A stretch of DNA of 64,000 bases from a virus: positions 1 to 64,000 of the IMG/VR virus record IMGVR_UViG_3300037230_000036. The stretch is one strand, 5' to 3'. The position numbers and the translations under genes are program-made. Below the pieces are notes generated by a model. That model was not told where the DNA came from. It ran no database searches and was given only the letters and a program-made list of their open reading frames with translations. This document shows, in pieces, positions 2,406 to 41,066 of the stretch; positions within the stretch are counted from its first letter, which is position 1; each line of letters begins with the position of its first letter.

Positions 2406-3282
2406 GCGCTGCAAGATGACGTTCGACAGCCCCCAGAAACGCCACGGCAGCAGGTGCGGACTCGTCGAAGGTGCCAAGAAACACGGAGTGTCGATCCAGC
2501 TTTATGTTGGCCTCCCATCGTCCACGCCGGAACCGGACGCCCTTGATTCCAGAGGCCCCGGCCGCACGGAGATCGCTAAGGCGACGCCGGGTCATCTCGA
2601 TTTTCGCATCCAACGAAATCGGCACCGCTGGCTTCCCCTTCTTCGCACGGCTGATCTTCTCGCCGGTTCCAGGTCGACGCTTCCGCCCGCGATTGGCGGC
2701 GGCTGTCTTGGCAATGGCAGCGAGCGAGCGTTTTCGTCCCCGCCTCGTTTCCGCGCCGCGCTCGATTGCCTCTCGCGACTGCTTTTTGCGCGGAGCCCCC
2801 GGCAGCTTGCGAGGCCGCTTAGGTCCGTCTACACCTTTCCAGTGGGCTCTCCCCATTCGCTCGCGCTGCTCCAGGGTGAAGATGCGACCCTTATTCGCGC
2901 GCGATATCCGGTCCCTGCTCTCTTGGGCCATTCCGTCGGACCCTTCGCCACCGAGCGTCATGTTGTAGCCGTAGGGGATAAAAGACCGATAGGACGCGAT
3001 CATGGCGCGCTCGACCGCAACGGCCTCGCGCAGGTTCACGGCCTCATAGATCATCTCAACATAGAATCGTTTAGCCCCGTACTTCATGATGGCTCGGTGA
3101 AATACCGCAGCGTGCCGGCCCTTTTTGTGGCTGTGCCGCGCGTTGTAGACATGCCACTTCCAGCGGACGGCGATCATCTGCCTCGTGATCCCGAAATAGA
3201 GCTTTCCGTTGTCGAGATTGAGCGCTCGGTAAACGCGCCAGAGCATATCATCATGTCTCTTCGCCGTTTCGGTGGCGATCAT
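2353..3282 (-). CDS. GIY-YIG homing endonuclease with NUMOD3 and AP2-like DNA-binding modules
   Basis: 309 aa from the ATG at 3282, which has GGAG 10 nt upstream; the open frame extends further 5' but only into the neighbour. Residues ~13-95 form a GIY-YIG nuclease core: VYRALN and LYFGIT stand for GIY...YIG, with a conserved Arg/His helix (RWKWH) and a later Glu (VERAMIASY). Two NUMOD3-like basic motifs follow (RISRANKGR, KISRAKKGK). The C-terminus carries an AP2/ERF-like segment (GIKGVRFRRGRWEANI...FLGTFD). This is a free-standing homing endonuclease on the strand opposite the structural genes. It overlaps both neighbours: its stop lies inside the adaptor gene and its start codon shares the CATG at 3280-3283 with the next structural gene. 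Confidence 0.85.
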   Translation of the reverse strand: MIATETAKRHDDMLWRVYRALNLDNGKLYFGITRQMIAVRWKWHVYNARHSHKKGRHAAVFHRAIMKYGAKRFYVEMIYEAVNLREAVAVERAMIASYRSFIPYGYNMTLGGEGSDGMAQESRDRISRANKGRIFTLEQRERMGRAHWKGVDGPKRPRKLPGAPRKKQSREAIERGAETRRGRKRSLAAIAKTAAANRGRKRRPGTGEKISRAKKGKPAVPISLDAKIEMTRRRLSDLRAAGASGIKGVRFRRGRWEANIKLDRHSVFLGTFDESAPAAVAFLGAVERHLAALIAQQVARRSSPGVAGP

Positions 3283-4759
3283 GTTCACTAGGCTCCAAAT
3301 TCCTCCAGGGGTGAACGTAGAAGCTAGCGCTAGCGCGGCTGATGGACAATGGAATATCAGCAACTTAATAAGATTTTTCGCACCGGGTGGCTTCGCGGAA
3401 AAAATCGGCGGCTGGGCCAAGCTCTGCAACACCGCCGTCTTGGGGGTCTGCCGCGCGCTGCACTACTGGGTCGACCTCTCCTCGATCCGATGGTTTGCAG
3501 CCGGGACCAACAGCAACCTCTATGTCGAGTCCAGCGGGGCGCTGACCAGCATCACGCCGGCGGGGTGGCCTGGCGGTGCGGCATCAAGCGGCGCTGTCCC
3601 GTACTCGCTCCTCATCTGGAGCCTCGACAATTTCGGCGAGAACCTGCTGGCGTGTCCGAGCGGCGGCGGCATCTACAACTGGGTGCCACCTGATACCGCA
3701 GTTCCGGCGGCGATCATCGCGACGGCGCCAGCCGCGAACCAGGGCGTCTTCGTCTCGGCGTCGCAGCAGATCGCCATCGCCTTCGGGGCGACGCCGCTGG
3801 GCGGCTCCGAGATGGACCCGATGCTGGTGCGGTGGTCGGATCAGAGCGACGATACCGACTGGATCCCGAGCACGACGAATCAGGCCGGCTCCTTCCGATT
3901 GAGCCGCGGCAGCCGGATCGTTTCCGGGCTATCGGCCCAGCTCAGCAACTTCATCTGGACCGACCTCGACCTCTGGCAGATGCAGTACATCGGCTTCCCG
4001 CTGGTCTACGGCTTCATCCCGGTCGGGCTGCAATGCGGGCTTCTTGCACAGAACGCCGTCGTCGTCCTCGGCGAAACGGTCTACTGGATGTCGGATCACG
4101 GCTTCTTTGTCTACTCCGGCTCCGGGGTGACGCCGATCCCCTGCTCGGTCTGGGATGTCGTCTACAAGAACCTCGACGACGCCAATGCCGACAAGTGCGT
4201 CACGCTTTCCAACTTCCTCTTCAACGAAATCTGGTTCTTCTATCCGTCGCTGAGCGGGGGAACCGGCGAGATCGACTCCTACGTCAAATACAACATCGTG
4301 ACGCAGGCATGGGATTACGGTTCCCTCATTCGCACCGCCGGCACCGATGCCAACAAGCCGAGCGGCCCGGTCTGGGTCGATCAGAACGGCTACCTGCAAC
4401 AGCACGAGAACGGGGTCGACGCCGATGGCGAGGCGATGACCGGAGTGCTGATCCGCAGCGGGTACACGCATCTGTCGCAGGGGCAGGACTTCCTTTTCAT
4501 CGACAGCTTTATCCCCGACTTCCTCTGGACTAATTCGACGGCTAACCCACCATCGGTCACCGTTACGCTGTACTTCCGGAACTGGCCCGGCGACACCCCG
4601 ACGACCGAGGGACCCTTCACCGTGACCCCAACGACCGAGTACATTACGTTCCGAACCCGCGCCCGCGAGGTCGCCATCGAGGTCGAGTGCAGTGCGCTCG
4701 GGGTCTGGTTCCGGCTCGGGCTGCCGTTTCTCCGGACACAGCCGGCAGGGAGGGTCTGA
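3281..4759 (+). CDS. Tail hub / DNA-stabilisation protein, P22 gp10-like propeller
   Basis: 492 aa from the ATG at 3281; a GTG at 3272 is in frame but adds only three residues. The pattern of short beta repeats with aromatic turns (WYVDLS-like, VYWMSDHGFFVYSG, ETVYW, WDYGSLIR) resembles the beta-propeller head-completion/tail-hub proteins that plug the portal in short-tailed phages. No transmembrane segment. The only ribosome-binding site is a weak GGTGG, and the whole upstream region is endonuclease gene, so the original leader was probably replaced. The stop overlaps the next start (ATGA). Confidence 0.5.
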   Translation: MFTRLQIPPGVNVEASASAADGQWNISNLIRFFAPGGFAEKIGGWAKLCNTAVLGVCRALHYWVDLSSIRWFAAGTNSNLYVESSGALTSITPAGWPGGAASSGAVPYSLLIWSLDNFGENLLACPSGGGIYNWVPPDTAVPAAIIATAPAANQGVFVSASQQIAIAFGATPLGGSEMDPMLVRWSDQSDDTDWIPSTTNQAGSFRLSRGSRIVSGLSAQLSNFIWTDLDLWQMQYIGFPLVYGFIPVGLQCGLLAQNAVVVLGETVYWMSDHGFFVYSGSGVTPIPCSVWDVVYKNLDDANADKCVTLSNFLFNEIWFFYPSLSGGTGEIDSYVKYNIVTQAWDYGSLIRTAGTDANKPSGPVWVDQNGYLQQHENGVDADGEAMTGVLIRSGYTHLSQGQDFLFIDSFIPDFLWTNSTANPPSVTVTLYFRNWPGDTPTTEGPFTVTPTTEYITFRTRAREVAIEVECSALGVWFRLGLPFLRTQPAGRV

Positions 4760-5485: not shown

Positions 5486-5572
5486 GCCCGCTTGGCGGAA
5501 TGGGAAGACGCGACGGATTTAAAATCCGCTGTCCTCCGGGGCTTACCGGTTCGAGTCCGGTAGCGGGCCCCA
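5486..5572 (+). tRNA. tRNA-Leu(UAA)
   Basis: 87 nt with an encoded CCA end. Acceptor stem GCCCGCT (5486-5492) pairs perfectly with AGCGGGC (5562-5568). The D stem is GCG/CGC, the anticodon loop TTTAAAA gives UAA, and a T arm (ACCGG TTCGAGT CCGGT) is present. A long variable arm, as expected for tRNA-Leu, follows the anticodon stem. The outermost anticodon-stem pair is A-C, which is unusual but tolerated. It lies alone between two structural genes; it could also mark an old integration site. Confidence 0.92.
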
Positions 5573-6476: not shown

Positions 6477-7394
6477 ATGCCGTGGGCCACAGGTGATGAG
6501 TTCGCTGACCGGCACAACCACAAGCTGATGGGGCCTGCCGCGACGAAGGCCGCTCATATGGCGACGGCGATGGTCAGCTCCGGGGTCCCCGAGGGCGAGG
6601 CGATCGCCACGGCAAATAAGCATGGCAACGGCATGATGCACGATCAGCGCGCCCTCGGCGGCGGCCTCAAAAGCGAATCCTTCCACCTCGGCTCACCCGG
6701 CACGATGAAGCTCCCGACCGATCCGGGGTTCGGCAAGACGACCAGCCCGAGTCAGGGGTCGCCGTGGTGGACGCGGTCGGAGGCCCGCAGCGGGACACAT
6801 GCCGGGTTCCAGTACGGTGGCGATATCGGCATGGGTATGGGCCTCTCCTCGGCGGCCGGTGAGCAGCGGTATCCGGACCAGCAGTTCGACTCGGGGCTGA
6901 TCGGGGGCGGCGGGTTTGGTCGCACCGATCGGCTCCCTTTGAGCGTAGCTGCCGGGAGTCATGTTCTTCCGGCTGATGTCGTAAGCGGGCTCGGCCAGGG
7001 CAATACGCTCGCTGGAGCAAAGGTTCTTGAGGCATCGCTTGCGACCGGTCCCTGGGGTATGCGCATCCCACATGAGGATCGTGGGCATGGGCCGCCTCGC
7101 GCGCCCACGGTGCCATCGTTCCTGCAGCCGCAGGCCGGTGGCGGCGATCCGCACTCGACCTCGATCCTTGCGGCGGCTGGCGAAATTGTCGTCCCGAGCC
7201 GTGATGTTGTTGCCCTCGGCGAGCGTGCCATTGCGCAGGGTCTCGGCAAAAAGGGCCAGTCTGCTGCCGATGTCGGTCACGATCTCCTTGACCGGATGAT
7301 CCACAACGTCCGCCAGTTCAACATCGCGTGGCTTCAGAAGGCACCGCCGCCGAAAAGGTCTATGGGCGGCGCGGTCTTCGGGGCTGCGGTATAG
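6477..7394 (+). CDS. Hypothetical virion protein, glycine-rich
   Basis: 305 aa. The first 60 residues are an Ala/His-rich helical domain (ATKAAHMATAMVSSGVPEGE) that also occurs at the start of other phage internal proteins. A long Gly/Ser/Pro-rich middle follows, then a compact helical end (GEIVVPSRDVVALGERAIAQ, then LLDRMIHNVRQFNIAWLQ). Position just before the acetyltransferase and the ejection-type protein suggests a virion or scaffold role. Not recognised further. Confidence 0.5.
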   Translation: MPWATGDEFADRHNHKLMGPAATKAAHMATAMVSSGVPEGEAIATANKHGNGMMHDQRALGGGLKSESFHLGSPGTMKLPTDPGFGKTTSPSQGSPWWTRSEARSGTHAGFQYGGDIGMGMGLSSAAGEQRYPDQQFDSGLIGGGGFGRTDRLPLSVAAGSHVLPADVVSGLGQGNTLAGAKVLEASLATGPWGMRIPHEDRGHGPPRAPTVPSFLQPQAGGGDPHSTSILAAAGEIVVPSRDVVALGERAIAQGLGKKGQSAADVGHDLLDRMIHNVRQFNIAWLQKAPPPKRSMGGAVFGAAV

Positions 7395-7397
7395 GGC

Positions 7398-7979
7398 ATG
7401 GATGTGCTCACACAGAAGCCGAGGGCACCGCTGTCGGCCAAACCCGAGAACGTCCGCGCCGCCACCCCCGCCGACGAGGCCGCGCTGTACGACCTGCTGG
7501 TGCGCCTGCACCACCATAATTCCGATGGATGGAGCTATCCCTTCAACCCGGTGCTCGTCTCCCGGCAGATCGAGGTCGGCACGCGCCCGAACCCGGACAC
7601 CCGCACGGAACCCCGCGACAAACGCCTCGGCATGATCGGGATCATCGACGACCCGATGTATGAGGGGTTCGCCGGCACCGTGGGGATCTTCCTGCAGCAG
7701 CCGATGTGGTTCTCCGATGTGCTGGTGCCGACCGAGCTCTGGCTGTACGTCGAGCCGCGGCACCGCGGGCACGGCAACCACTACGAGGCCGATCTGATGG
7801 CCTTCGCGAAGTGGGTGCAGGCGACGATGAAGGCGAGCGCCGCGATGGCGGAGTACGGGGCGCCGTTCCCGTTGCTGACCGGGTTCATGCACCTCGGCGC
7901 CCGTTACCCCGCAATGCAGCGGCGCTGGCTACGGCTCTGCGGCGGGAAACAGGTCGGCTCGCTGTTCATGGTGGAATGA
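7398..7979 (+). CDS. GNAT-family N-acetyltransferase-like protein
   Basis: 193 aa. It begins with the ATPADEAALYDLL pattern usual for the first GNAT helix. The core strand ELWLYVEPRHRGHG carries the acetyl-CoA pyrophosphate loop (RxxGxG), and a helix (YEADLMAFAKWVQ) follows. Phages often place such enzymes among late genes, where they may acetylate virion or host proteins; the substrate here is unknown. It ends 60 nt before the 1,642-aa ejection-type gene. Confidence 0.7.
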   Translation: MDVLTQKPRAPLSAKPENVRAATPADEAALYDLLVRLHHHNSDGWSYPFNPVLVSRQIEVGTRPNPDTRTEPRDKRLGMIGIIDDPMYEGFAGTVGIFLQQPMWFSDVLVPTELWLYVEPRHRGHGNHYEADLMAFAKWVQATMKASAAMAEYGAPFPLLTGFMHLGARYPAMQRRWLRLCGGKQVGSLFMVE

Positions 7980-8038: not shown

Positions 8039-11000
8039 ATGAGCGGCGGCAGTTCCGGCGGTACGACCACCACCACGAGTCAGCCACCCGCCGCGGTCCA
8101 ACAGGCCTATGGCGAGCTGACCAATGCCGCCTTCAACCAGTCGCAGCAGCCTCTCAGTCAGTATTCCGGAAGCTTGGTTGCCGGTTTTACGCCGCAGCAG
8201 CAGCAGGGTTTCCAGACCGTCGCGAACTCGGCGGGCGTCGCCGACCCCTACATCAACTCGGCGGCGCAGGAGTTCGGGTCCGCGACGACCCCGCTCTACG
8301 ACACGGTGCAGAATTACGAGAGCCCCTACACCACCGATGTCACGAATGCGACCCAATCCCTCTTCAACCAGCAGAACGCGACCCAGCTGCAGCAGGTGCA
8401 GGGGCAGGCGACGCAGGCCGGAGCCTATGGCGGCGACCGCGAGGCTGTGGCGCAGGCGTTGACGGCGCAGCAGCAGCAGCTCGCCGAGGCTCCGACCCTC
8501 GCAAACACGGAGCAGCAGGGCTACCAGACCGCGCTTTCGGCGGACGAGGCACAGGGCTGGCTCGGTAGCCAAGCCGGGTTCGGGATGTCGTCGCTCGGCA
8601 CCGAGGCGCAGAACACCGCGCTCACCGGGGCCTCCGCGAACATCTCGGCCGGCGGGATGCAGCAGCAGCTCGCGCAGGAAGAGCTCAACGTCCCCTACGA
8701 GGAGTACACGCAGCAACAAGCCTACCCCTACCAGCAGCTTCAGTTCCTGGCCCCCATTGTCGAGGGCACCGGGTCGCTGTCGGGCGGCACTGGCACGACA
8801 ACGACGCCGGCCCCGAGCACGCTGTCGCAGCTCGGCGGTCTCGGGATGGCCGGGCTCGGGGCCTACGGGCTCTACAACAGCGCAACGAGCGGAGCGAGCA
8901 CGGGTGCCGGCGTCGCGGCCGACTATGCGGATGCTGATTTCGGCAGCAAGAAAGGTGGCCGGATCGGCTTCGCGGGCGGCGGCGCTCCGATGACGAACAA
9001 CGGGATGGTGCCGAACCTATCGATCTCGGTGATCCCGCCGACCCAGATGTTGCCGGCGAACCCGTCATCGCCGATGTCGCCGTTCGCGCCGGTGACGACG
9101 CAGAGCAGCACCGCCGCCAGTTCCGGCATCCTCGGCGATCTCGGTCCGCTGGTGCAGATCGCGGGCCTCGCATCGAAGTTCCTGAAATCTGGTGGTCGGA
9201 TCAGTTTCCAGGATGGTGGCACCACGCTTCTCACACCGCAGACGACGTCGACGACATACGGCCTCCCGGCGGTTCCGCAGATCAGCATCGGGCAGATCAT
9301 CCAGCCGGCGACCGGCCCTGCGATCAAGGGCAGCGGTCCGCCGCATCCGCCGGCCGCGGCGCCAGCCGATAACCCGGAAAAGGATGCCTCCGGGCTCGTC
9401 TCCGGGATGCAGTCGCTGGAGAAATCCGGCCTCCTCGGTTCCGGGAACACTGCGGGTTCGGGCAGCAAAGCCGGGGGCCGGCTCGGCTTCCAGGACGGTG
9501 GGGAGTCGCTGGGGCCGTCGACGGGGACGATCGAGGGGGCGTCACCGAACACGCAGAACTATTTCCAGCAGCTCATGCAGATGTCGACCGAGCAGCTGCA
9601 GGAGCTGTCGGTGCGGATGCCGCCGAGTTCGCCCTACGGGGCTATGGTACAGCGCGCGCTGGCATCGAAGCGGATGAACCCCAGCAGCGCGGCGACGCCA
9701 TCGCCGAGTTACGCGCAGGGGGCGCAGCAACCCTCGGGGGCCGGCACCGTTCCGGGGATCTCTGCGCCCGCCCAGGCGGCCACACCGACCGCCGGCACCA
9801 CGCTCGCGGACGGCGGGATAGCATCGGGCATCGCGGTGCCCTCGGTTTCGGAAAGTGAGATCGATCCGGTTCCGGTTGTCGATCACAGCGGCGATACCGT
9901 GAAGATCCGGTATCCGTCGGAAGGGAAGACCCTCGACCTCGGGCTCCCGTCGATTCGTCCGCGGTCGCCGGGGTTCGCCGCTGGGGGATCGCCGGGGCCG
10001 GCCAGCGCATCATCGACATTTACGGCGCCCCCGCTGTCCTCGTTCTACGCCAACCCGTCGGCGAGCGGATACCAGTGGAACCTGCCGAGCCCGACTGGGA
10101 CCGGGGCCAACGCGGCGTCACCCGCGAATTTCCCATCGACGACGCAAGCCGGGTCGCCGGCGGGGATGTCATTTCTACAGGCACCGAACGGGGTCGCTAT
10201 CCCGCAGCTCAACGCGAACACGTTGACCGGCGGTCCCGGCGTCGGCGGCAATCCAGCCGTCGCGGCCGGGGGTGGTCTTGCTGGCTGGAACCAGCCGTTG
10301 GCGCAGTTGCCAAACCCCGGCGGTTCCCCGGTGACGACGCCGCCGCTCAATTTCGGCACACCGAGCCTCAACGGTATTGCGGCGACTACGACGCCGGGGG
10401 CAACGACGATCGCCATTGATCCTGAAATTGAGGCCGTGGAAAATTCTCCAAGCGGGGGCAGCAAGCGCGGTGGCCGCACCGGGTTCCAGGATGGCGGCGA
10501 TGCGGCTGGGCTTGGGGTTGACGACGGCACGGATGCCGGGGGCGGAGCGGCTCTGTTCCCTCCCGACGACCAGGTGCAGACCGACGTCTTCGCGCTTCCC
10601 AGCATCGGCCTCGGGACCCCCGCCGGGAGTACGAATTTCGCACCGCCATCGGGGCCGAAGTTCGCCCCCTCGTTCGGAATGGGTGATCCGGCTTCGGCCC
10701 TCGTGTCCGGGGCCAAGACGCTGGCGAGCGAAGCGACGACGCCCGACATGCCGGCCGGGTCGCCGAATACCTACGAGCCGCCGTTTACGCCGAAGCCGCT
10801 ACCGCCGATGCCGTCCAAATCGTCGGTGCCCGCCGCTGCGGCACCGGATACGACGGCACCGGATACGACGAAGGACGGGATGGTGTCCGGGTTGCCGAAG
10901 CCAGGCGCGGCTCCCGCGCCGGACCTCTTTGCGCCCGCAGCCGGGGATGCCGGGCTTGGTCTCCGCGACACCGGCTCGCCGGCAACATCAGCCGGTCCAG

Positions 11001-12967
11001 GTCAGGGTCCCGCGCCGAAGGATGCCGCCCCGGCCCCGATCTACGCCACCGGCGATAGTCACGCATGGGGTCTCATCGCGCATGGCGGCCTTCAGGGAAC
11101 GACCAGTGCGACGCCGCTTGACCCGAATGTCGACGGCTCGATCGGTCGGTCGCCGCGCGCTGAGTACGACTACATCACCTCGCGACCAGAGGGATATTGG
11201 AAAGGCAAGAGCGTCGTCTTGTCGACGGGCGTCGCCAACGATCCCTCCCAGGTTGATCTGGTGCCGTGGCAGATATCGGCGCTCAAGGAGCGCGGGGCGA
11301 GCGTGACTGGAATCGCTGGTTTCACCAAGACCGGCGCCAAGGGAACCGACATGACCCCTGTTGCGGCGCAGATCGACAAGATCGCTGGAGACGCCGGGAT
11401 ACCGTTCGGCGGTATTTGGCAACAGGATGTGAGGCCACAGGACCCGGTGCATCTGACGAACACCGGATATCAGAAGGTTGGTCAATGGTTTCAGGGAACG
11501 CCCGAGGCATCGGGGGTTTCCGCTCAACCGGCAGTACCGCCCCAAGGAAGTGCAGCAGAACAGCAGACCGCCGCGAGCACCGCAACGGGACCGATCGCAG
11601 ATTATATTCGCCAAGGATCCATTGCACGCGGTCTCGATCCTACGCTCGCGGAAAAAACGGTGGGGTCAGAAGGTGGCTTCGGAGCGTTCAAACTCGGGGA
11701 TAGTGGATCGTCGGGGGGTGCCTTCCAACTTCACCTCGACGATCCGAGTCGTCCGGGCCAGGGAACGTCGCTGGGTGACCAGTTCTACCGCGATACCGGC
11801 AAAAATCCGCTGGACCCCGCGAACCACCTCGCCACCATCGACTATTCACTCGACTACGCGAAGGCGCATGGGGGCACCTTTGATCCGAACATCTGGCACG
11901 GGTTGCGCAGCGGCAATCTTGTCGCTGGCGGAGGTTTGCAGCTTGGCCAACGCGCGGTGGGCGCAGGGGGCGGCGCACCTGCGGACCAGGTCGTTACCGG
12001 AGGGGCCGCCACTCCGCAGCAGCAGGCGACGGAGATCGGCAATCGCGCGCTCTCACAGGTGCCGCCGGAGCACCAGAGCGCGATGCGGCAGTGGATGCAG
12101 TCACCGTACTACATGGCATTCCTCACCGGGGCCGGCATGCTGGCGTCGCGGTCGCCGTATCCTGGGGTCGCGCTGGGCCAAGGGCTCGAGCTCGCGGCGA
12201 AGGGGATGCAGACGGAGGAGGCGCAGGACAATAAGCAGCAGCTCGCCGAGGCGCAGGTGCTCCGGCAGTCCGACCTCAACGATTACCGGATGCAGCGCGC
12301 CGGCGATCAGCACCAGGCCGCACTCAACACGGCAGCCAACAACACGCAGATGATGCAGTACCGCTACGACAACCTGCAGCGTCAAATCCAGCAGGGCAAC
12401 GACACGCTCGCGCTGCGGCAGGAGATCGCCACCACCTCGGCCGGAGTGCAGGCGTCCAAGCTCGAGGAGCAGCGCATCCGTGACCAAGCGACCCGGGATT
12501 ACCACACCGCCATCGCAAACCGGCCTCCTCCCGGCCTCGCCGTCATCCAGGCGCTGATGAACGACCCCAACGATCCGAACCGGCCGACCACGGTCGCCGA
12601 GGCACAACAGCGGCTGACGGCGGCGAAGGCGAATCCGGATGCCGCAGCCAAGCTCAACCTCTCGATCGAAACACAGGCGCGAACCTGGACGACCGAAGAC
12701 CAGCACGCATTCATGATGGACCCCTCGAACATCGGCCGCAGCTTCGATGCCAACGGGGCCTACCGGCAGCACCTCGACACGCTCAAGGGTGGGCTCGGGG
12801 TTACGCCTCAGCCGGGAGCGCCAGCCACTCAACCGACCCCGCAGGCAGCCGCGCCCTCAGGTCCGCCTCAGGCCGCCGTCAGCGCACTACAAGCTCATCC
12901 GGAAATGCGCGGGCAGTTCGACGCGAAGTACGGGGCCGGGGCTTCGTCGCAGTATCTCGGGCAGTAG
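8039..12967 (+). CDS. Multidomain ejection-type protein: SGNH hydrolase-like plus lysozyme-like domains
   Basis: 1,642 aa; GAGG precedes the ATG. Residues 1-250 are a Gln/Ala-rich helical domain. Four copies of a GGRxxFxxGG motif (near 302, 382, 476 and 807: GGRIGFAGGG, GGRISFQDGG, GGRLGFQDGG, GGRTGFQDGG) punctuate long disordered Pro/Gly/Ala linkers. Around 1003-1140 lies an SGNH esterase-like domain (block I GDSHAWG, block V DPVHLTNTGY). Around 1187-1295 is a lysozyme/transglycosylase-like domain (ARGLDP, SEGGFG with candidate catalytic Glu near 1210, GGAFQLH). The end (1350-1500) is coiled coil. This fits a protein ejected with the genome that cuts peptidoglycan and perhaps deacylates envelope sugars. 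Homology calls are by motif only. Confidence 0.75.
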   Translation: MSGGSSGGTTTTTSQPPAAVQQAYGELTNAAFNQSQQPLSQYSGSLVAGFTPQQQQGFQTVANSAGVADPYINSAAQEFGSATTPLYDTVQNYESPYTTDVTNATQSLFNQQNATQLQQVQGQATQAGAYGGDREAVAQALTAQQQQLAEAPTLANTEQQGYQTALSADEAQGWLGSQAGFGMSSLGTEAQNTALTGASANISAGGMQQQLAQEELNVPYEEYTQQQAYPYQQLQFLAPIVEGTGSLSGGTGTTTTPAPSTLSQLGGLGMAGLGAYGLYNSATSGASTGAGVAADYADADFGSKKGGRIGFAGGGAPMTNNGMVPNLSISVIPPTQMLPANPSSPMSPFAPVTTQSSTAASSGILGDLGPLVQIAGLASKFLKSGGRISFQDGGTTLLTPQTTSTTYGLPAVPQISIGQIIQPATGPAIKGSGPPHPPAAAPADNPEKDASGLVSGMQSLEKSGLLGSGNTAGSGSKAGGRLGFQDGGESLGPSTGTIEGASPNTQNYFQQLMQMSTEQLQELSVRMPPSSPYGAMVQRALASKRMNPSSAATPSPSYAQGAQQPSGAGTVPGISAPAQAATPTAGTTLADGGIASGIAVPSVSESEIDPVPVVDHSGDTVKIRYPSEGKTLDLGLPSIRPRSPGFAAGGSPGPASASSTFTAPPLSSFYANPSASGYQWNLPSPTGTGANAASPANFPSTTQAGSPAGMSFLQAPNGVAIPQLNANTLTGGPGVGGNPAVAAGGGLAGWNQPLAQLPNPGGSPVTTPPLNFGTPSLNGIAATTTPGATTIAIDPEIEAVENSPSGGSKRGGRTGFQDGGDAAGLGVDDGTDAGGGAALFPPDDQVQTDVFALPSIGLGTPAGSTNFAPPSGPKFAPSFGMGDPASALVSGAKTLASEATTPDMPAGSPNTYEPPFTPKPLPPMPSKSSVPAAAAPDTTAPDTTKDGMVSGLPKPGAAPAPDLFAPAAGDAGLGLRDTGSPATSAGPGQGPAPKDAAPAPIYATGDSHAWGLIAHGGLQGTTSATPLDPNVDGSIGRSPRAEYDYITSRPEGYWKGKSVVLSTGVANDPSQVDLVPWQISALKERGASVTGIAGFTKTGAKGTDMTPVAAQIDKIAGDAGIPFGGIWQQDVRPQDPVHLTNTGYQKVGQWFQGTPEASGVSAQPAVPPQGSAAEQQTAASTATGPIADYIRQGSIARGLDPTLAEKTVGSEGGFGAFKLGDSGSSGGAFQLHLDDPSRPGQGTSLGDQFYRDTGKNPLDPANHLATIDYSLDYAKAHGGTFDPNIWHGLRSGNLVAGGGLQLGQRAVGAGGGAPADQVVTGGAATPQQQATEIGNRALSQVPPEHQSAMRQWMQSPYYMAFLTGAGMLASRSPYPGVALGQGLELAAKGMQTEEAQDNKQQLAEAQVLRQSDLNDYRMQRAGDQHQAALNTAANNTQMMQYRYDNLQRQIQQGNDTLALRQEIATTSAGVQASKLEEQRIRDQATRDYHTAIANRPPPGLAVIQALMNDPNDPNRPTTVAEAQQRLTAAKANPDAAAKLNLSIETQARTWTTEDQHAFMMDPSNIGRSFDANGAYRQHLDTLKGGLGVTPQPGAPATQPTPQAAAPSGPPQAAVSALQAHPEMRGQFDAKYGAGASSQYLGQ

Positions 12968-17406: not shown

Positions 17407-20400
17407 ATGGACGGCTGGCAGCATTTCGCCGAGGGTGGCGACACCGACGCGCCGGACCAGGTGGTAGCGCCGGCCGGGAACGTCTTCGACCAGTTCGACC
17501 AGCCCGCAAAGCCGAGCGCACCCGCCGCGACACCGATCCCCTCGGCGCCGCCGGGCAACTTCTTTGACCGCTTCGACGCGGGCACGAAGGCCGCGGCACC
17601 ACCTGCCACCGGCGGCAATTTCTTCGACAAATTCGACGCGCCGAAACCCGCGGCCGCCGCAGCCTTCACCCGCGAATCGCCGCTCCTCCCGAAGTCACAG
17701 GCGGACATCGACGCGGCGGCGCCGGGCTCCTGGATCAAAGACCCGACCCGCGGCGACCTCTACCAGATGCCGGCGAAGGCCGAACCAGCAGCGCCTCCGG
17801 CCCCCGCGCTCGACTTCTCGAGGCTGACCCCGGGGCCGAAAGCGCCGACCGCAGGGCAAGCGGCACTCCATGCCGCCGAGCGCAGCGTCGTGCCGGCTGC
17901 TGGCGGTCTCGTTGGGGCCGGAGCCGGGGCGGAACTAGGTGCGGCGATCGGTGCATTCGGGGGGCCGCTGGACTGGCTGACGGTGCCGGCGGGCGCGATT
18001 ATCGGCGGCGGCATCGGCGCTATGGGGGCCGGGTATGGCACCGAGAAGGCGCAGGAGGCAGTCACATCGAAAATCCCGGAGTCGGTCAAGGAAGCGGTCG
18101 GCCAGGGAACCGAGCAGCAAGAGGCGGAGACCAAGGCGCACCCGGTCGCCCAATGGATCGGCGAGAATGCCCCGTACCTTGCCGCGCTGTCTCCGTTCGG
18201 AGCCGCCGAGCATGCGCTTCCGGAAGGGGCTGGAGCATTCGCTCGGGCGATGCAGAACCCCGTGGCGCAGCGCGCTCTCCCCGCCGCGATCATGGGTGGC
18301 CAGGAGGCCGTTAATGAAAAGGTGCAGGGCGAGCCGCTGAATCCGTGGGAGATCGCCGGCGCCGCTGGGGTCGGCGGTCTCTTCAACAACGAGACTCGCG
18401 TCGGTTCGGCGCTGACCGGGGCCGGCTCGGCCGTGGCTCGGCCGCTGGCGGGTCCCGCCGCGCGGCTTGCCGGACACGCGCCGCCGTCGGAAACCGGGCC
18501 AGCGGCCCCGCCAGCGCCGCCAGGGCCCGGCGCAGCGGCCGCAGCCGCGCCAGCATGGCCGCCAGCCATCGGCGAGACGTTCGGCCTCAACATGGGCGAC
18601 GCCGGCGTGCAGCCGGTCACGGTCAGCCGCTATACCCCCGACGGCGACATCGTGCTCAAGGACGCCGACGGCACCGAGCACCCGATGACCCCGGAGGACG
18701 TCGCCCGGTTCCGTGCCCCGCTGCCGACAGGAGAAGCTGATGCCCCGACACCGGAAGCCGCAGGAGCGCCGCCAGCAGTCGAAGCGCCTCCCGCCCAAGG
18801 TTCAGCGCGCGCAGCAGTACCGCCAGCGCCAGCGGAAGCGCCTCGCCCGGAAGTGACGGCGGCGCCGCAGATGGCCGGCGAAGGCCAGCCAGCGACGATG
18901 GAAGATCTCGAGCACGTCGCCGCGCTGGAGCGTGCCGCCGCAACTGGGGCGCCGGTTACCCCGCAGCCCGCGCTTGCCACGGCGGAGGCGACGTTGGGGC
19001 GCGAGGCGCAGGGCGAGCCGATCGAACCACCGCGGCCCGCTGCCGCCCCCACAGAGTCTGACGCCGGGACGACGGCAAGCGTGCCGTTCATGATAACGGG
19101 CGCCATGCGCGCGGAGCTCGGCCGCCGCGGCTACACGCAAGAGCAGATTCGCAGCCTGACGCCGGCCGTTGCGCACTCCATTCTTTCTGCTGCGGCGCCC
19201 GTTGCGGAACCGGCAGCACCACCCCGATCCCAATTTGTATACGACGGCACTCCGCGGCCCGAAAACATCGGTACATGGGAAGATGTCCCTGAGACTCCGC
19301 CCGAGCCAGAAGCGACCCGAGTCACAGCGCAAGCCCCGGAGACTGCGGGAGAACCCGCGCCGGCCGTTGCGACAAATATTCCCGAAAATATTCCGGCGCC
19401 GCCCGATCCCTACCAGCGCGCGGTCGAATTGCTCCAGAACCGCGGCGTCGGCAATCCGATCAACGCCGGCATCCTCCGCTCGCAACTCGGGCTCAGCCTG
19501 CCTGACACGCGGAGCGTGATCGACAGATTGTCGGCCGAGGGATATTTGGCCGGCACCGGGCGCAACATGACGATCGCGGAGCCCGGTGCAGTGCCGCCGG
19601 TGGGAAATGAACCGGGGACTGCCGCTGCTACTCCGTTGCCTCAAGCCGCAGATGTCGGAAATGAGCGCGCCATTCCGCAGGCTGCTGAGACCGAATTGGC
19701 AACGGAACCGGAACGAGCGCCGGAACCTCTTCCTACGCCGGCACCTCAGCCGCAGCGCGCCCCAACCGAGGCGGACATCGGCCGCGCGTCCGAGCAGATC
19801 TTCGCCGCGTACCAACAGGGCGGACCAGACGCCGCACGGGGGGTGTACCAGAACCTCGTTGAGACCTGGCCTGGCGGTGCGGTGGAGAATGCCCGCGCCA
19901 GGTTTCAGAGCCTCGTTGAGGGCAGCGGAAAGCCGTGGGAACAAGCGCAGCAGGAGGCCGGAAACCGCGCCAAGGTCACCGAGGGCAACCACACCAAGAC
20001 CGGAGCGCCGATCGTCACGGTGCAACTCGCGCAGAAGGTCGGGTCGGACGAGTTCAAGGGGCTCGGGGCGCAGGCCCGGAAACTCGGCGGCTACTACTCG
20101 TCCTATCGGGGCCGCGGGGCACTACCGGGGTTCGTGTTTCCAGAAAAAGAAGGGTTGGCGGCGGCACGCGATCGGGCAAACGACTTCGCCGCCCTGGCCG
20201 AAGGGAAAGCGCAGGTGCCGGCGGCGATAAAGCCCGAACCTCCTCTCGCGGCGGACGAACATCTTGGCCTCGTCTCAACGTCGCTGGAGAGTCCGGCCAC
20301 CCCGCATTCCGACAATCCGCAGGTGCAGATGGCCGATACCATTGCGCTTCGGCTGGAGCAGGGCGGCACGCCGATCTCTGCCCGCGAGTTGCAGCAGCTT

Positions 20401-23400
20401 GCGGAGGGCGTCTACGGCAGCAAGCTCGCCGAGGGAAAATTCGACCGCGCCACGATGTACGATGCGCTCGAACTCGGGGTGAACAAGTTCATCGCCGCGC
20501 ACCCGGAGCGCTTTGATCCATCGGTAGACCTCAGCCGCGCCCTTAGCACCGCCGCAGAACTCCGTGCACTGAAAGAGAAATTGCCGACGCAGACGGTGCG
20601 TGCCGGGGAAAAGGAAACGCTTCAGCAGTTCTCGACGCCGCCGGACTTCGCCTATGCCGCCGCTTGGGCCGCCCGCCTCGACCGCGACGACTCCGTTCTG
20701 GAGCCTTCCGCCGGTACCGGCAGCCTCGCGGTCTTCGCAATGAACGCGAAACCGCGCGAGGTCACCGTCAACGAGATCTCCGCAAATCGCGCCCCGCTGG
20801 TCGAAAGCCTTCGGCCGACCCGGGCCTTCCGTGAGAATGCGGAGCAGATCAACAACATCCTGCCGCGCGAGGTGCGCCCGACTGCCGTGCTGATGAACCC
20901 GCCGTTTTCGTCGGCCGGGACGCGGCTCGCCGGTCGACGCCAGATCAACATCGGCGCGCAGCACGTCGAGCAGGCGTTGGAGCGGCTGGAGTCCGGCGGC
21001 AGGCTCGTCGCGATTGTTGGCCGCGGCATGGGGCAGAATATGGAGGCCGCGTACCGTCAGGGCACCGGGGCGCACTTCGCGGATTGGTGGCGACGGATCG
21101 GCCAGCAATACGACGTCCGCGCCAACATCGGCGTGCCGGGCGAGGTCTACAACAAGTACGGCACCAATTTTGAAACTCGGCTCCTCGTCATCGACAAGGT
21201 GCCACCAACGGGTCGCGCGCCGCTTATTGCGGAATCGACCGGCGTCACCGATCTTATGCAGAGGCTACAGGAGGTGCGGGATGATCGACCGCAACCCGTT
21301 GCCGGCGCTGAACCGGCTGCCGGTCAACCAAGCGGCGCAGCGGTGCATGGCGAAGGGGCAGTTGAGCCCGGACCCGAACCGGCTTCACGCGATCGAACTG
21401 CTGCAACTGGGGTTCCAGTTCCGCCTGCCGATACCGGGACAGGCCGAGGGCTATCGGTCGGACCTGGAGAGCGCGGCGGAGCAGCTGGACAGCCCGCGGC
21501 TCGCCCCAGCGGACGTGATGAGGTGGCTCCTCAGCAACCCGAACGCGGGGTCGACGGAGGAGCAGAGCAGCACCCTGTCGGAGGAGCTGCTGGACGCCCC
21601 GACGTGGCAGGCGGGAGCGCAGCGCCTGATGCAATGGTTCTACGACCTGAAGGCGAGCCTGGAGCCGTTCTACCGCCCGGCGCCACATCTCCAGACGTAG
21701 TTCCGTCGCCCGCTGTCGTCAGCGTCGACGAGACCGGCGCGAACCCGGAGACTGCGGGGCCGATCACCGAGCAGGTCTACGAACCGTACCGGCCACAGCG
21801 GATCACGGTCGCCGGCGCAAAGAGCCACCCGACAAAACTGGTGCAGACCGCCGCGATGGCATCGGTGATGCCGCCGGAAACGAGTTACGCACCGAGACTT
21901 CCGAAAGCGCTGATCTCGGCCGGGAAGCTCTCCGACGCGCAGCTTGAAGCCATCGTCTACGCCGGACACGCTCATGCGCAGATGTTGCCCGCGATCGAGG
22001 GCGAGGTGCCTCAGCGCCGCGGCTACTTCATAGGGGATGGGACCGGCGTCGGAAAGGGCGCTCAGGTCGGCGGCATTATCCTCGACAACTGGAACCAGGG
22101 CCGCACCAAGGCGGTATGGCTCAGCGAAAGCCGCACCCTCATCAACGATGCGCGCCGGGACTGGCGCTGGATGGACCGCGATCCGAAGGAAATCTTCGAC
22201 TTCGGGAAGACCGCGAAGCCGGGCGAGGATGTCAAGGTCGGGAAGGGGATCGGCTTCCTCACCTACGACACGCTCAAAGGCTATGAGCGGCAGGGGAAGG
22301 ACGCCGAGGGGAGGACGCTCAAAGGGCGTACCCGCGTCGACCAGCTCGTCGACTGGCTCGGCCCCGAGTTCGACGGGGTTATCGCCTTCGACGAATCGCA
22401 CAACCTCGCGAACAGCATTCAGACCAAGGGCTCCCGCGGCTTGCAGGACGCCGCGCAGAAGGCGCTGTCCGGGATCGAGTTGCAGCAGCGGCTACCGAAC
22501 GCCAGGGTCGTCTATGTGTCCGCAACCGGCGCGACAGAGGTCAGCAACCTCGCCTATGCGGAGCGGCTCGGGCTCTGGGGACATGGATCCGCCTTCCCGA
22601 ACAAGGGTGAGTTCATCAACCAGATCGGGGCTGGGGGAGTCGCGGCGATGGAGCTCGTCGCTCGCGACATGAAGGCGATGGGTTCCTACATCTCCCGCAA
22701 CCTCAGCTATGACGGCGTCGAGTACGACCGCCTCGAACACAACCTGTCGCCGGATCAGCGCCGCATTTACGATGATCTGGCCGACGGCTGGCAGAGCGTC
22801 CTCAACAACATGGAGGAAGCGCTGCTCGCGACGACCGGGACCCGTGACAACAATGGCAACCCGAAAGCTGATTCGCGGCAGCGGTCCAATGCGCTGTCGG
22901 CGTTCTGGTCGGGACACCAGCGCTTCTTCAACCAACTCATCACGACACTGCAGATGCCGTCGGTGATCCGCGGGATCGAGGGAGACCTGAGGGCCGGGCG
23001 CCAGTCCGTCCTGCAACTCGTCAACACGAACGAAGCCTCGCAGGAGCGCGCGATCTCCCGGGCGCGAGCCGAGGAAGGCGACCTTGAAGACCTCGACATG
23101 ACCCCACGGGATCAGTTGATGCAGCTGGTCGAGAAGTCATTCCCGGTTCACCAGATGGAGGGGTACGTCGACGAGAACGGCAACACGCGGAGCCGCCCGG
23201 TGCGGGACAGCGCCGGAAACCTCGTCGAGAACGCCAAGGCCGTAACTATGCGAGATCAGCTGCTGTCGCGGCTCGGCAGCATCCGTGTGCCGGACGGCCC
23301 CCTCGAACTGTTGATGAACCACTTCGGCACCGACAAGGTCGCCGAGATCACGGGCCGGAAGCAACGCGTCGTCCGGAAGGCTGATGAGCGCGGCCAAGTC

Positions 23401-26400
23401 CGCAACCAGATCGAGTCCCGGCCGGCGAGCGCGAACGTGACCGAGGCGGACGCCTTCCAGAATGCCAAGAAGCCGATCCTCGTGTTCTCGCAGGCTGGCA
23501 TGACGGGCCGCAGTTATCATGCCGACCTCTCATCGGAGAGCGCGGGTGCGCGGCGGTCGCACTACCTAGTGCAGGCTGGGTGGCGAGCCGATAAGGCGAT
23601 CCAGGGTTTCGGCCGCACGCACCGGACCAACCAGGCGTCGGCGCCGATCTTTCATCTCGTCACGACCGACCTCCAGGGACAGCGTCGGTTCATCTCTTCG
23701 ATCGCCCGCCGCCTGGCGCAACTCGGGGCTCTGACTAAGGGAGAGCGGCGCGCAGGGGAGTCCGGGATGTTCAGCGCCCGCGACAACCTCGAAAGTACGG
23801 AAGCCCGCTCGGCCCTGTCCGCCTTCTGGCGCGACATGCAGCATGGCCGCATCCCGGCGATCGAACCCCGCGACTTTGAACAGCAGACCGGTCTCAAACT
23901 GGAGAACAGCAACCACGAGAGTACCGAGGCACCAGAGATCACGCAGTTTCTGAACCGACTGCTGTCGCTGAAATTCGACACGCAGAACGCGGTCTTCGGT
24001 GCTTTCGAGGAACGGTTGAACACGGCGATCGACCGCGCTTCCGCTGCGGGCACGCTGGATGTTGGAACGGAAACCCTCAAGGCGGATCGGATCGCCAAAC
24101 AGGAGGAGCGCACCGTCCACCGCGACCCGCAATCCGGAGCAGAGACCAAGTACGTGCGGCTTCGGGTCGACAACCGGGTGAACCCGCGCACCTTCGATCA
24201 GGTATCCCGCAATGCCAGCCGCGGCGAGGCGCCGGCTTTCTATGTGCGCTCAAAGCGGTCCGGCAAGGTGATGGCGGTGTCGCCGTCGAACGATGTCACC
24301 GACGCTAAGACCGGGCGCATCATCCCGGAATACCGGCTCACCGATCCGCTGCGGTACACCTTCCTTTCCCGCGACAAGATCGACGGCTACGGCGCCGAAC
24401 GGAACTGGGAGCGCATCGATGACCCCGGCCAAGCCCGCGATCTCTGGAACGCGCAGGTGGCGGCACTCCCCGAGTTCCAGAGCCACGACGAACATCTCAT
24501 CACCGGCGCGCTGCTGCCAATCTGGGATCGCCTCAAGGGGTTCCCGAAGGTTTATCGGCTGCAGACCGACACCGGCGAGCGTATGCTGGGGCGCACTATC
24601 TTTCCGTCCGACCTAGATGCAACGCTGAAGGCCCTCGGGGCCGAAAGCAGCGGCCGCACCTACGAGCCGGCCGAGGTCGCGGCTGGCGTCGCGCAGGGAG
24701 CCCGCGCCTCGCTAGCCAACGGGTGGTCGCTGCGGCGATCAATGGTCGCCGATCAGCCGCGCATCGAATTGATCGGCCCCGACTACAGCAACGATGCCGA
24801 ATTGCGCTCAGCGGGGGTGTTCTCCGAGCGCATCGGCTACCGGACCCGCTACTTCGTGCCGACTGGAGATGACGCGGCCGGGTCGATCGCTAGGATCACC
24901 GAACGCCGCCCGGTCGTCGACATGATGCGCGGAACCGATGACGAGGAAGGGTTGGAGGAACCCGGGGCGACTTCGTCCAGCGCGCCAGGCGCACGGGACA
25001 CCACCGACGAATATCACCAGTTCGCCTCGGCCTATCCGCAGACCCCGGACGCCCAGACCGCTGCGGCCGCACACTACGTCTCCTATTCGGGAGCGCAGAC
25101 TGGAAACGAGCACCTCGCCATCGTCGACCGCAGCGGTCAGCCGATCGGAGCCGGGACCAGCGATGCGCCGGACCGCGTCAGCTTTGATGTGCCCGGGCTC
25201 AACGAGCGGCTGGCTGATCCGGCGTCTGACCTCGCCATCCACCACAACCATCCCCGAGACCTCGCGCTGAGCGGCAGCGACGTGGCGACGCTCGGCTATC
25301 CCGGCGCGGCCACCGTGGTTGCGCACGGGCCGCATGGCGACATCTTCGCAGCGCACCTGACGCCCGAGGCGAAGGTCGCATTCGACCAGCACATCGAGCG
25401 TCCCGGAAATCTATCCGCAGCCCGCGCGCCCTACGAAGCCGCGAACCGGATCGTCCGGAGCGCCCTCACGATGCAGGTGCTCGGCGACAAGTTGGCCCCG
25501 GACGCTGCGGAACGCCTGCAGGCCGACATGGTGAACCGCGCCCTTGATGCGGCGGGGCTCACCGATTATGTGAGTACACGCGGTTCCGAGGGGCTCCCGG
25601 ATCGCGTCTACCGCTCGATCGTCGCCCGCGCCGCGCGGGAAGCCCAGGACGCGATGGCGCAGTCGCCGCGCACCGCCGCACTCAGGGGAGATGTCAGTGC
25701 TCGACTTGATCGATCCACCGTCGTCCTTCAGCCCGACGCCGCAATGGCAGCAATTTCTCGATTCGCTGCCGGCGCAGAGCGCGGACCCGCAGACGCAGGC
25801 GCTGCGGACCGAGGCGCAGGACGAGTTGGCGCGGAGGCAGGGCGCGGGGAAGCCGTGGTGGGTGCAGGAGGACTCCGCGAAGAACCCGCCGACTTCGGCA
25901 GCGGAGCCGTCGACGAAGCCGTAGACGAGGCCGGAACGCCAGAGGACACCCGCGGCTATTTCCAGCGCCTCGGCGACTCGCTCGGCATGGGGCGCGCGGC
26001 GCCGGGCAGGGGCGACCACTTCTTCAACATCCTCAACAAGGACTTCACGTTTCCGCGGTCGAAGGCGTCGCTGGACCCGCGGTCATCGCAGAAGTGGCAG
26101 GCCGAGCTCGCGAAGAAGCGGTACGCGACGGCGCTCGCCGACGGCTACCACGATGGCCTCGCCTCCTGGACCGGGAAGCCGCCGGAGACCTGGCGCAAGG
26201 TCTTCGGGGCGATGGAGATCCTGACGCTGGAGGGCCGGCAGGTGCCGCTCGATGGTCGCGCCGTGATCGCCGAGAACTCGCGGTTCCCCTTCGCGGCCCA
26301 TTCGAAGATCGGCGATACCATCCGCCTGACGACCCCCGACGAAATCGGCATGTTCACCGACTACCGCCGCACGATGGACAAGGTGTGGAAGGATGTCGTC

Positions 26401-39333: not shown

Positions 39334-39548
39334 CAGTCGGATTCTCCCGCGCGGACGATTTTTGAAAATGACGCAAACTCTCCCCGCTTTTCCATGAGTT
39401 TCATTCCATGAGGAAAGTTGAAATTGCAGCAGATTGCGCCACCGTGAACCGTATACGACCTGCGCCATGTCCAGCACGCCGTTATCTGCCATAGTCGCGC
39501 TACAAGCCGGTCACCTTCGCATAGGTCGCTGTCGTGGATTTCGGCCAT
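39333..39548 (-). CDS. Small hypothetical protein coupled to recT
   Basis: 71 aa; GAGG upstream of the ATG, and the stop overlaps the recT start (TGATG). Contains a Cys/Trp-rich centre (ACWTWRRSYTVHGGAICC) and a basic end. Not recognised; the overlap supports translation. Confidence 0.5.
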   Translation of the reverse strand: MAEIHDSDLCEGDRLVARLWQITACWTWRRSYTVHGGAICCNFNFPHGMKLMEKRGEFASFSKIVRAGESD

Positions 39549-39559
39549 GAGAATCCGCC

Positions 39560-40834: not shown

Positions 40835-40845
40835 AGTTTCCCCTT

Positions 40846-41064
40846 TCAGATATCGTGCGCTCGTGAGGCGCTGTCATTTCCGTCGCCGCGGTAGCCGTAC
40901 CTCGTCGACATGATCGTATCGACCCAGACCGAGTGCTTCGTCGCGTCGTAATGCCGGGCAGCAACGGCGAGCGTGTTCTTCCCGTTCCACGCTTTGCCGC
41001 AGTCAAAACAGCCACCTTGCTGCTGACTGATGAAGCTAAAGCCGTCGCGGTCATTGCGGGCCAT
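40846..41064 (-). CDS. Small hypothetical protein with Cys pair
   Basis: 72 aa from ATG 41064, immediately after the YqaJ stop. Contains QQGGCFDCGKAWNGKNTLAV and a C-terminal basic/aromatic segment. Possibly zinc-binding; not recognised. Confidence 0.55.
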   Translation of the reverse strand: MARNDRDGFSFISQQQGGCFDCGKAWNGKNTLAVAARHYDATKHSVWVDTIMSTRYGYRGDGNDSASRAHDI

Positions 41065-41066
41065 CC

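What the first reader, a model, noticed from the sequence alone, without database searches (positions are those of the whole stretch)
8039..12967. Ejection-type protein combining SGNH hydrolase and lysozyme-like domains with four GGRxxFxxGG motifs
The repeated GGR.GF.DGG motif recurs at domain borders and may insert in membranes or be processed. An esterase beside a peptidoglycan-cutting domain in one ejected protein suggests removal of O-acetyl groups before cell-wall cleavage.
Basis: partly seen in the sequence, partly recalled or inferred. Interest (0 to 1): 0.55.

Follow-up and report, generated by a model that had tools for sequence, protein, structure and literature searches.

The report
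Phage ejection protein with two wall enzymes
A large protein that a virus of bacteria probably injects into its host carries, side by side, an ester-removing enzyme fold and a probable cell-wall-cutting domain, behind a repeated short motif that turns up in many other phage proteins.

Summary
In detail: one intact 1642-aa ORF (8039-12967, +) with four GGRxxFxxGG motifs (0.00025 expected by shuffling), an SGNH domain and a lysozyme-like domain. Its N-terminus matches the PHROG 'DNA ejection protein' (E 8.8e-14); its lysozyme-like domain is related to internal virion proteins of alphaproteobacterial phages. The SGNH domain models well (pLDDT 84); its best solved matches include the peptidoglycan O-acetyl enzymes OatA and PatB, level with other GDSL esterases. 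Ser and His are kept in seven of seven relatives. Relatives of this SGNH domain occur in four phage proteins without a phrog_4287 match, three of them with a recognised wall-cutting domain, which favours 'deacetylate, then cut' without proving it. Membrane insertion or processing at the motifs has no support in this protein. The motif is widespread: among 57 other motif-bearing ORFs the only named PHROGs are tape measure, DNA ejection and endolysin, though at least 27 matched nothing. In ten, several closely related, a Tat-like segment follows it. Verdict: new variant of a known kind (mosaic ejection protein).

The parts
8039..12967 (+). mosaic ejection / internal virion protein, 1642 aa
   Evidence: ORF intact; single match in the record
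8045..8893 (+). N-terminal ejection-protein domain, aa 3-285
   Evidence: phrog_4287 'DNA ejection protein' E 8.8e-14; 73 viral loci encode relatives; low-confidence helical model, pLDDT 58
8954..8983 (+). motif 1 GGRIGFAGGG (aa 306-315)
9191..9220 (+). motif 2 GGRISFQDGG (aa 385-394)
9473..9502 (+). motif 3 GGRLGFQDGG (aa 479-488)
9851..9964 (+). conserved block around VDHSGDTVKIRYPSEGKTLDLGLP (aa ~605-642)
   Evidence: 21 invariant positions in 5 aligned relatives; 6 viral loci, 4 of them on contigs already held
10469..10498 (+). motif 4 GGRTGFQDGG (aa 811-820)
11036..11503 (+). SGNH hydrolase domain (aa ~1000-1155); Ser1007, Asn1067, Asp1135, His1138
   Evidence: alignments; model; structure matches
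11591..11938 (+). lysozyme-like domain (aa ~1185-1300), Glu1211
   Evidence: tblastn to OH p39 6e-7, phiGT1_18 6e-6, RHph_TM16 3e-4, phiM5_28 1e-3; Glu invariant in 5 of 5 aligned
12086..12223 (+). conserved C-terminal hydrophobic block with GAGMLASRSPYPGVALGQGL (aa ~1350-1395)
   Evidence: a pattern lists a like block in 17 relatives besides the window protein, some near-identical to each other
7398..7979 (+). acetyltransferase gene just upstream, as in OH and phiGT1
   Evidence: phrog_1249 E 9.4e-6
6477..7394 (+). upstream gene with one related element AGFQYGGD
   Evidence: no PHROG or Pfam match
3272..4759 (+). virion structural protein
   Evidence: phrog_3287 E 6.2e-68
17407..28770 (+). 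3787-aa ORF with a strawberry-notch-type helicase; HFAEGGD from aa 6
   Evidence: PF13872 E 2.1e-112 and PF13871 E 5e-72 in 1000-aa pieces; motif-like site

Best explanation
This is an internal virion (ejection) protein of a probably podovirus-like phage. It looks like a fusion of two genes that lie next to each other in phiM5 and OH (an N-domain gene and a gene with the lysozyme-like domain), lengthened by a linker with four GGRxxFxxGG motifs and by an SGNH domain. Likely mechanism: it is packaged in the head and passes through the tail into the periplasm, where the SGNH domain removes O-acetyl (or related) esters from wall sugars and the adjacent lysozyme-like domain cuts the freed glycan locally, so that the DNA channel can cross. 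Shown: ORF, domains, SGNH fold, conserved active-site residues, homology and gene order. Inferred: packaging, ejection, both enzyme activities, substrate and order of action. The GGR motif is most likely a linker element that several co-delivered proteins share (docking or threading); its role is a guess.
For: N-domain: phrog_4287 E 8.8e-14. A short-form relative, L030, finds OH p40 (E 3e-7) and, weakly, phiM5 gene 27 (E 4e-4); these lie directly upstream of the genes with the relative of the lysozyme-like domain, OH p39 and phiM5_28. phiM5_27 and _28 are annotated as detected in the particle proteome. Acetyltransferase gene upstream as in OH and phiGT1. SGNH fold: pLDDT 84.2, pTM 0.82; Foldseek first PDB hits are a C. 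jejuni GDSL esterase (E 7.5e-4, the only one under 0.001), an Agrobacterium arylesterase (2.2e-3) and PatB of C. jejuni and N. gonorrhoeae (2.2e-3, 3.1e-3); VIA top is S. aureus OatA, Z 12.8, rmsd 2.7 over 139 residues. Recurrence: an SGNH-only scan returned 6 loci, 2 on contigs already held; the four new proteins (L087, L088, L090, L091) have no phrog_4287 match; L087 and L088 carry Pfam SLT above cut-off, L090 matches an endolysin PHROG over aa 312-482, E 1.8e-14. The best viral structure match is a Synechococcus phage protein named for an M15C peptidase domain (E 5.6e-7). O-acetyl at C6 of MurNAc blocks lysozymes and lytic transglycosylases (PMC6174289, passages).
Against: No host is known, and PMC6174289 (passages) says O-acetylated peptidoglycan occurs mainly in pathogenic species and not in E. 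coli or P. aeruginosa. OatA and plain GDSL enzymes tie in Z (12.8 against 12.3), so the fold does not give the substrate. The lysozyme-like domain has no significant Pfam, NCBIfam or PDB match; one of its relatives is a tape measure protein of a long-tailed phage gene set, so the domain is not tied to podoviruses. The record nearest by terminase is titled 'Myoviridae sp.', so the tail type here is inferred. Only 2 of 26 long relatives examined keep the SGNH domain. L091, one of seven SGNH proteins, shows no recognised wall-cutting domain. Phage SGNH domains are best known from receptor-binding proteins (PMC13123978, passages).
Confidence: 0.6

Rival explanations
1. The SGNH domain deacetylates a surface polymer (capsule, O-antigen, exopolysaccharide) and its place beside the lysozyme-like domain is incidental.
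For: SGNH domains in Klebsiella prophage receptor-binding proteins are active esterases thought to remove capsule acetyl groups (PMC13123978, passages); polysaccharide deacetylases are proposed in Curtobacterium prophages (PMC9862828, passages); carbohydrate acetylesterases and sialate O-acetylesterases are among the structure matches.
Against: The domain sits in a protein with ejection-type N- and C-parts; SGNH relatives found by an SGNH-only scan lie beside SLT or endolysin domains in three of four new proteins.
Confidence: 0.2
2. The SGNH domain transfers acetyl rather than hydrolysing it, like OatA: it would re-acetylate or shuffle acetyl on peptidoglycan, limiting wall damage or later superinfection.
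For: A block reading IGR (window) and VGR (L004) fits the OatA (V/I)(G/S)(R/V) motif, whose Val/Ile favours transfer (PMC5697884, passages); OatA is the top VIA match.
Against: No acyl donor or membrane acyltransferase part was recognised in the protein; block III GVAN is one residue longer than G(T/V)N; the five other relatives lack IGR/VGR; OatA ties with plain esterases.
Confidence: 0.08
3. The SGNH and lysozyme-like domains are degenerate or structural leftovers of a fast-recombining protein.
For: Wall-cutting domains vary in kind and presence among relatives; in L007 none was seen in this gene, while the next gene has one.
Against: Ser and His kept in 7 of 7 at 29-60% identity to the window domain; Glu invariant in 5 of 5.
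Confidence: 0.12

Closest known systems
Internal virion proteins of phages phiM5, OH and phiGT1 (phiM5_27/_28, OH p40/p39, phiGT1_18)
   Same: N-domain family (phiM5_27, OH p40), related lysozyme-like domain, similar gene order
   Different: separate genes there; the window protein adds SGNH and four GGR motifs. Whether those phages encode an SGNH domain elsewhere was not tested beyond a tblastn of three SGNH-bearing queries against all phage records, which found none
T7 gp16 ejection protein
   Same: ejected, with a peptidoglycan-cutting domain; a review describes swaps of such domains among ejection proteins (PMC8954989, passages)
   Different: the window protein has no tblastn match in any of 50,697 phage records at E 1e-5; an SGNH domain is not mentioned in the passages read
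OatA / PatB peptidoglycan O-acetyltransferase catalytic domains
   Same: SGNH fold, catalytic Ser and His, OatA-like block II in window and L004
   Different: no transmembrane acyltransferase part recognised, block III spacing differs, 13-17% identity in the structure alignments
S. aureus phage 80alpha Tal (gp59)
   Same: SGNH/GDSL domain in phage entry machinery, suggested to act in wall degradation, activity not established (PMC7048315, passages)
   Different: baseplate tip protein of a long-tailed phage; no lysozyme-like partner in the passages read
Synechococcus phage S-H38 protein A0A873WIR8
   Same: best viral structure match of the SGNH model, in a protein named for an M15C peptidase domain
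   Different: only its name, length and the fold match were seen

Membership tests
phage ejection / internal virion protein | sequence relation to a family annotated as ejection protein | tested here: met
   phrog_4287 E 8.8e-14, aa 3-285
phage ejection / internal virion protein | position among virion genes next to an acetyltransferase and structural genes, as in OH and phiGT1 | tested here: met
phage ejection / internal virion protein | present inside the virion and ejected | not testable with these tools
   related phiM5 genes are annotated as proteome-detected
SGNH hydrolase | SGNH fold | tested here: met
   model pLDDT 84.2; PDB matches
SGNH hydrolase | catalytic Ser (block I), Asp and His (block V), Asn (block III) | tested here: met
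   GDS, DPVH, GVAN in the window; Ser and His in 7 of 7, Asp in 4, Glu in 3; the Asn is placed one residue apart in the two subgroups
SGNH hydrolase | significant sequence match to a curated GDSL/SGNH family | tested here: inconclusive
   none for the window; sub-threshold PF00657 for L088 (E 0.0013) and L090 (E 0.011)
peptidoglycan O-acetyl esterase or transferase (Ape, OatA, PatB) | activity on O-acetyl peptidoglycan | not testable with these tools
   fold only
OatA | (V/I)(G/S)(R/V) block II and G(T/V)N block III | tested here: inconclusive
   IGR/VGR in window and L004; block III GVAN is one residue longer; the other five lack the block II motif
lysozyme-like superfamily | significant match to a curated lysozyme or transglycosylase family | tested here: inconclusive
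   none in Pfam, NCBIfam or PDB; tblastn best E 6e-7 to OH p39, noted as putative peptidoglycan hydrolase, and 6e-6 to phiGT1_18, noted as muramidase-like
lysozyme-like superfamily | conserved candidate catalytic Glu | tested here: met
   Glu1211 invariant in 5 of 5 aligned

The most novel reading that the evidence does not exclude
GGR(I/V)GFxDGG is an undescribed linear motif that marks proteins which phages deliver into the cell. It is shared by unrelated proteins of one cassette and serves as a common docking, threading or Gly-Gly cleavage site; in some phages it directly precedes a Tat-like SRRxFLK plus hydrophobic segment inside the ORF, so that a cut at the motif would release a protein with an export or membrane signal. 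In the window protein the same motifs would space or release the parts ahead of a paired deacetylase and wall-cutting unit.
Probability: 0.25. Interest if true: 0.8.

Novelty: new variant of a known kind. Interest (0 to 1): 0.56.

Why it matters
Phages must pass the wall at the start of infection. A paired esterase and cutter in one ejected protein would show that some meet modified walls with a two-step tool, and would give a ready enzyme pair to test. The shared GGR motif, if it does mark delivered proteins, gives a handle for finding ejected proteins that homology misses, and a testable question: what binds or cuts it.

Tried and rejected
Pfam on the whole protein: nothing. tblastn of the whole protein and of its N-domain against 50,697 phage records: no match; likewise the L004 SGNH-lysozyme piece and the L088 SGNH piece. 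SGNH scan of viral contigs with the single window sequence: none of 5 candidate stretches confirmed; with window plus L004: 1 of 28, on the contig of L004. Lysozyme-domain scan: none of 27 confirmed. Genome-contig scan with the N-domain alignment: none of 68 confirmed, so no named host. NCBIfam on the enzyme regions: nothing above cut-off. PDB sequence profiles of the three kinds of wall-cutting domain: no significant match; the SGNH pair alone found nothing, the seven-member SGNH profile only weak hits, GDSL proteins and unrelated ones mixed (best E 0.033). The N-domain model is too poor (pLDDT 58) for a fold search, so none was run. Membrane insertion by the GGR motif itself was set aside for this protein because the motif is polar and Gly-rich (read from the sequence; no membrane predictor was run). 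Long minus-strand ORFs over the gene were taken as shadows of high GC and not studied. The ribosomal protein hits (E 0.12 and worse) are taken as chance.

Full report
WHAT IS THERE. The window is bases 1-64,000 of a 91,268-base virus record. The ORF 8039-12967 on the + strand encodes 1642 aa. It has four copies of GGRxxFxxGG at aa 306, 385, 479 and 811. Shuffling the protein 20,000 times gave on average 0.00025 copies and never more than one. The record carries a terminase (phrog_38, E 4e-62), a portal (phrog_1216, E 2e-15) and a virion structural protein (phrog_3287, E 6.2e-68). Terminase relatives include Roseobacter and Pelagibacter phages at 24-32% identity; the nearest record (34%) is titled 'Myoviridae sp.'. 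I call the phage podovirus-like because of the internal virion genes discussed below; the tail type is not shown. GC is 61-67%. The host is not known.

EJECTION PROTEIN. Residues 3-285 match PHROG 4287, annotated 'DNA ejection protein' (E 8.8e-14). A scan of viral contigs with an alignment of five such N-domains returned 73 loci; I extracted the ORF in 49 of the 73 and left out 24 that were weaker or repeated. Of the 49, 26 are 500 aa or longer and 23 shorter, some cut by contig ends. A relaxed GGR motif is present in 18 of the 26 long forms, absent in 8, and in 0 of the 23 short ones. Some of the 26 are near-identical (L012/L013, L019/L020, L026/L027). A short form, L030 (28% identical to the window N-domain, E 1e-15), finds 14 phage records, among them Caulobacter, Planktothrix and Microcystis phages, OH p40 (E 3e-7) and phiM5 gene 27 (E 4e-4). 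In OH and phiM5 the next gene carries the relative of our lysozyme-like domain, and phiM5 genes 27 and 28 are annotated as detected in the particle proteome. So the window protein looks like two neighbouring virion genes joined in one; this is an inference from order and homology. An acetyltransferase gene lies upstream in the window, OH and phiGT1. A C-terminal block like GAGMLASRSPYPGVALGQGL is listed by a pattern in 17 relatives.

SGNH DOMAIN. L004 (2134 aa) has the same domain, 62% identical over aligned letters, with GDSH, GVAND and DPVH intact. L015 (1934 aa) has a shorter relative. A scan with these three returned 6 loci: two on the contigs of L004 and L015, four new (L087, L088, L090, L091). 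Among the seven proteins the catalytic Ser and His are invariant; the acidic residue is Asp in four and Glu in three (L087, L088, L091). AlphaFold2 gave pLDDT 84.2 and pTM 0.82. Foldseek's first PDB hits are a C. jejuni GDSL esterase (E 7.5e-4), an Agrobacterium arylesterase and PatB from C. jejuni and N. gonorrhoeae. VIA puts S. aureus OatA first at Z 12.8, with a GDSL lipase-family protein at 12.3; these are ties. The window and L004 read IGR and VGR, fitting the OatA motif (V/I)(G/S)(R/V), and GVAN where OatA has G(T/V)N; the motifs are from passages of PMC5697884. The other five have G(S/T)N but not that block II. I therefore call the domain an SGNH ester enzyme of partly OatA-like build, not an OatA.

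WALL-CUTTING PARTNER. In the window it is a lysozyme-like domain with Glu1211. tblastn against phage records at E up to 5 gave 8 records: Ochrobactrum phage OH p39 (E 6e-7, twice listed), Sulfitobacter phage phiGT1_18 (6e-6), Rhizobium phage RHph_TM16 (3e-4), Sinorhizobium phage phiM5_28 (1e-3) and three weaker. OH p39 is noted as a putative peptidoglycan hydrolase, phiGT1_18 as muramidase-like, phiM5_28 as an exolysin; the TM16 gene is a tape measure without such a note. The Glu is invariant in five of five. L004 and L015 have another lysozyme-like domain; Pfam Phage_lysozyme2 reaches only E 0.028 in L015, below cut-off, and the two are 36% identical. L010, L005 and L006 share a third kind, named wall-cutting by eye only, and no SGNH. 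L087 and L088 have SLT (Pfam, above cut-off), L090 an endolysin match (E 1.8e-14), L091 none that I could recognise. So six of seven SGNH proteins have a wall-cutting partner: three on family evidence, the window by homology to annotated virion enzymes, two on weak evidence. The four new proteins have no phrog_4287 match; in L088, L090 and L091 the N-terminal part matches phrog_10475. In L087, L088 and L090 the SGNH domain follows the cutter, in the window, L004 and L015 it precedes it. The best viral structure match is a 1196-aa Synechococcus phage protein named for an M15C peptidase domain (E 5.6e-7). This recurrence in both orders is the best argument that the pairing is functional; no rate of chance pairing was computed.

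MECHANISM. Passages of PMC6174289 state that O-acetyl on C6 of MurNAc blocks lysozymes and lytic transglycosylases. A delivered esterase beside a delivered cutter would remove that block. T7 gp16 is an ejected transglycosylase, and a review describes swaps of such domains among ejection proteins (PMC8954989, passages). The esterase step, the substrate and the delivery of this protein are inferred. Against: no host; O-acetyl peptidoglycan is not general; and phage SGNH domains are best known from receptor-binding proteins thought to act on capsule (PMC13123978, passages) or from a staphylococcal tail tip (PMC7048315, passages).

THE GGR MOTIF. Related elements occur in other genes of the same neighbourhoods: window 6477-7394 (AGFQYGGD), window 17407 from aa 6, the ORF downstream of the ejection gene in L015 (GGRPGFAEGG at aa 5), L005 and L040, and the one upstream in L004, L007 and L016. 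Against exclusivity, the same pattern gave single hits in five other ORFs (L010, L011, L015, L016, L019), by their look mostly Gly-rich chance, and one GFAVGG in the tail fibre gene and one minus-strand match in the window. The two further stretches of this record gave none. I scanned 57 of the 80 ORFs, dropping look-alikes, four very short ones and one very long one; some close relatives remain. Of 14 PHROG families matched, those with a name are tape measure (5 members and 1), DNA ejection (4) and endolysin (2, 2 and 1); eight are unnamed; the member counts sum to 30, so at least 27 of 57 matched nothing. The longest motif-free ORFs of the same loci, 55 in number, are instead portals (17), phrog_3287 (15), terminases, fibres and others; this control is not matched for length or composition. 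A second motif gene lies in 11 of the 57 loci. Of 12 matches to RR.F[LMI][KG] among the 57 proteins, 10 come 2-8 residues after a motif and are followed by a hydrophobic stretch, as in GGMSRRTFLKIMAALASFPVVG, 9 with a Met just before; several of the ten are close relatives. The likeness to Tat signals is my own recognition and was not tested. I saw no such segment behind the motifs of the window protein (sequence). The string GGRIGF is in none of the held papers, and twin-arginine with phage and ejection protein gave none.

LITERATURE. Searches listed no paper whose title or abstract describes an SGNH domain with a wall-cutting domain in one ejection protein; I read passages of eight papers, no paper in full. 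Subscription papers are not held.

VERDICT. Observation confirmed; interpretation partly supported; a new variant of the mosaic ejection protein. Interest 0.56, for the recurring enzyme pair and for the shared motif.

Noticed in passing
L097, L103, L106, L109, L111, L112, L125, L127, L135, L174 (motif ORFs): A Tat-like twin-arginine plus hydrophobic stretch begins 2-8 residues after a GGRxGFxDGG motif in mid-ORF, in 9 of 10 with a Met just before: internal start, fused gene or cleaved export signal. Several are close relatives.
   Followed up: partly
window 17407-28770 (+): 3787-aa ORF with a strawberry-notch-type helicase (PF13872 E 2.1e-112, PF13871 E 5e-72) and a methyltransferase match just under cut-off, with a motif-like HFAEGGD from aa 6; possibly a co-delivered protein.
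   Followed up: partly
window 9851-9964 (+): Block VDHSGDTVKIRYPSEGKTLDLGLP, 21 invariant positions in 5 relatives and found in 6 viral loci, function unknown.
   Followed up: partly
window 5486-5572 (+): A tRNA-Leu (taa) sits between virion genes.
   Followed up: no
window 37732-42026 (-): RecT-like annealing protein and RecE-like exonuclease genes.
   Followed up: no
window 48323-50113 (+): Ribonucleotide reductase large subunit (phrog_84 E 6.4e-122).
   Followed up: no
L003 1441-3343: An HNH endonuclease ORF (phrog_99 E 9.4e-60) directly after a likely major head protein (phrog_371 E 9.3e-6).
   Followed up: no
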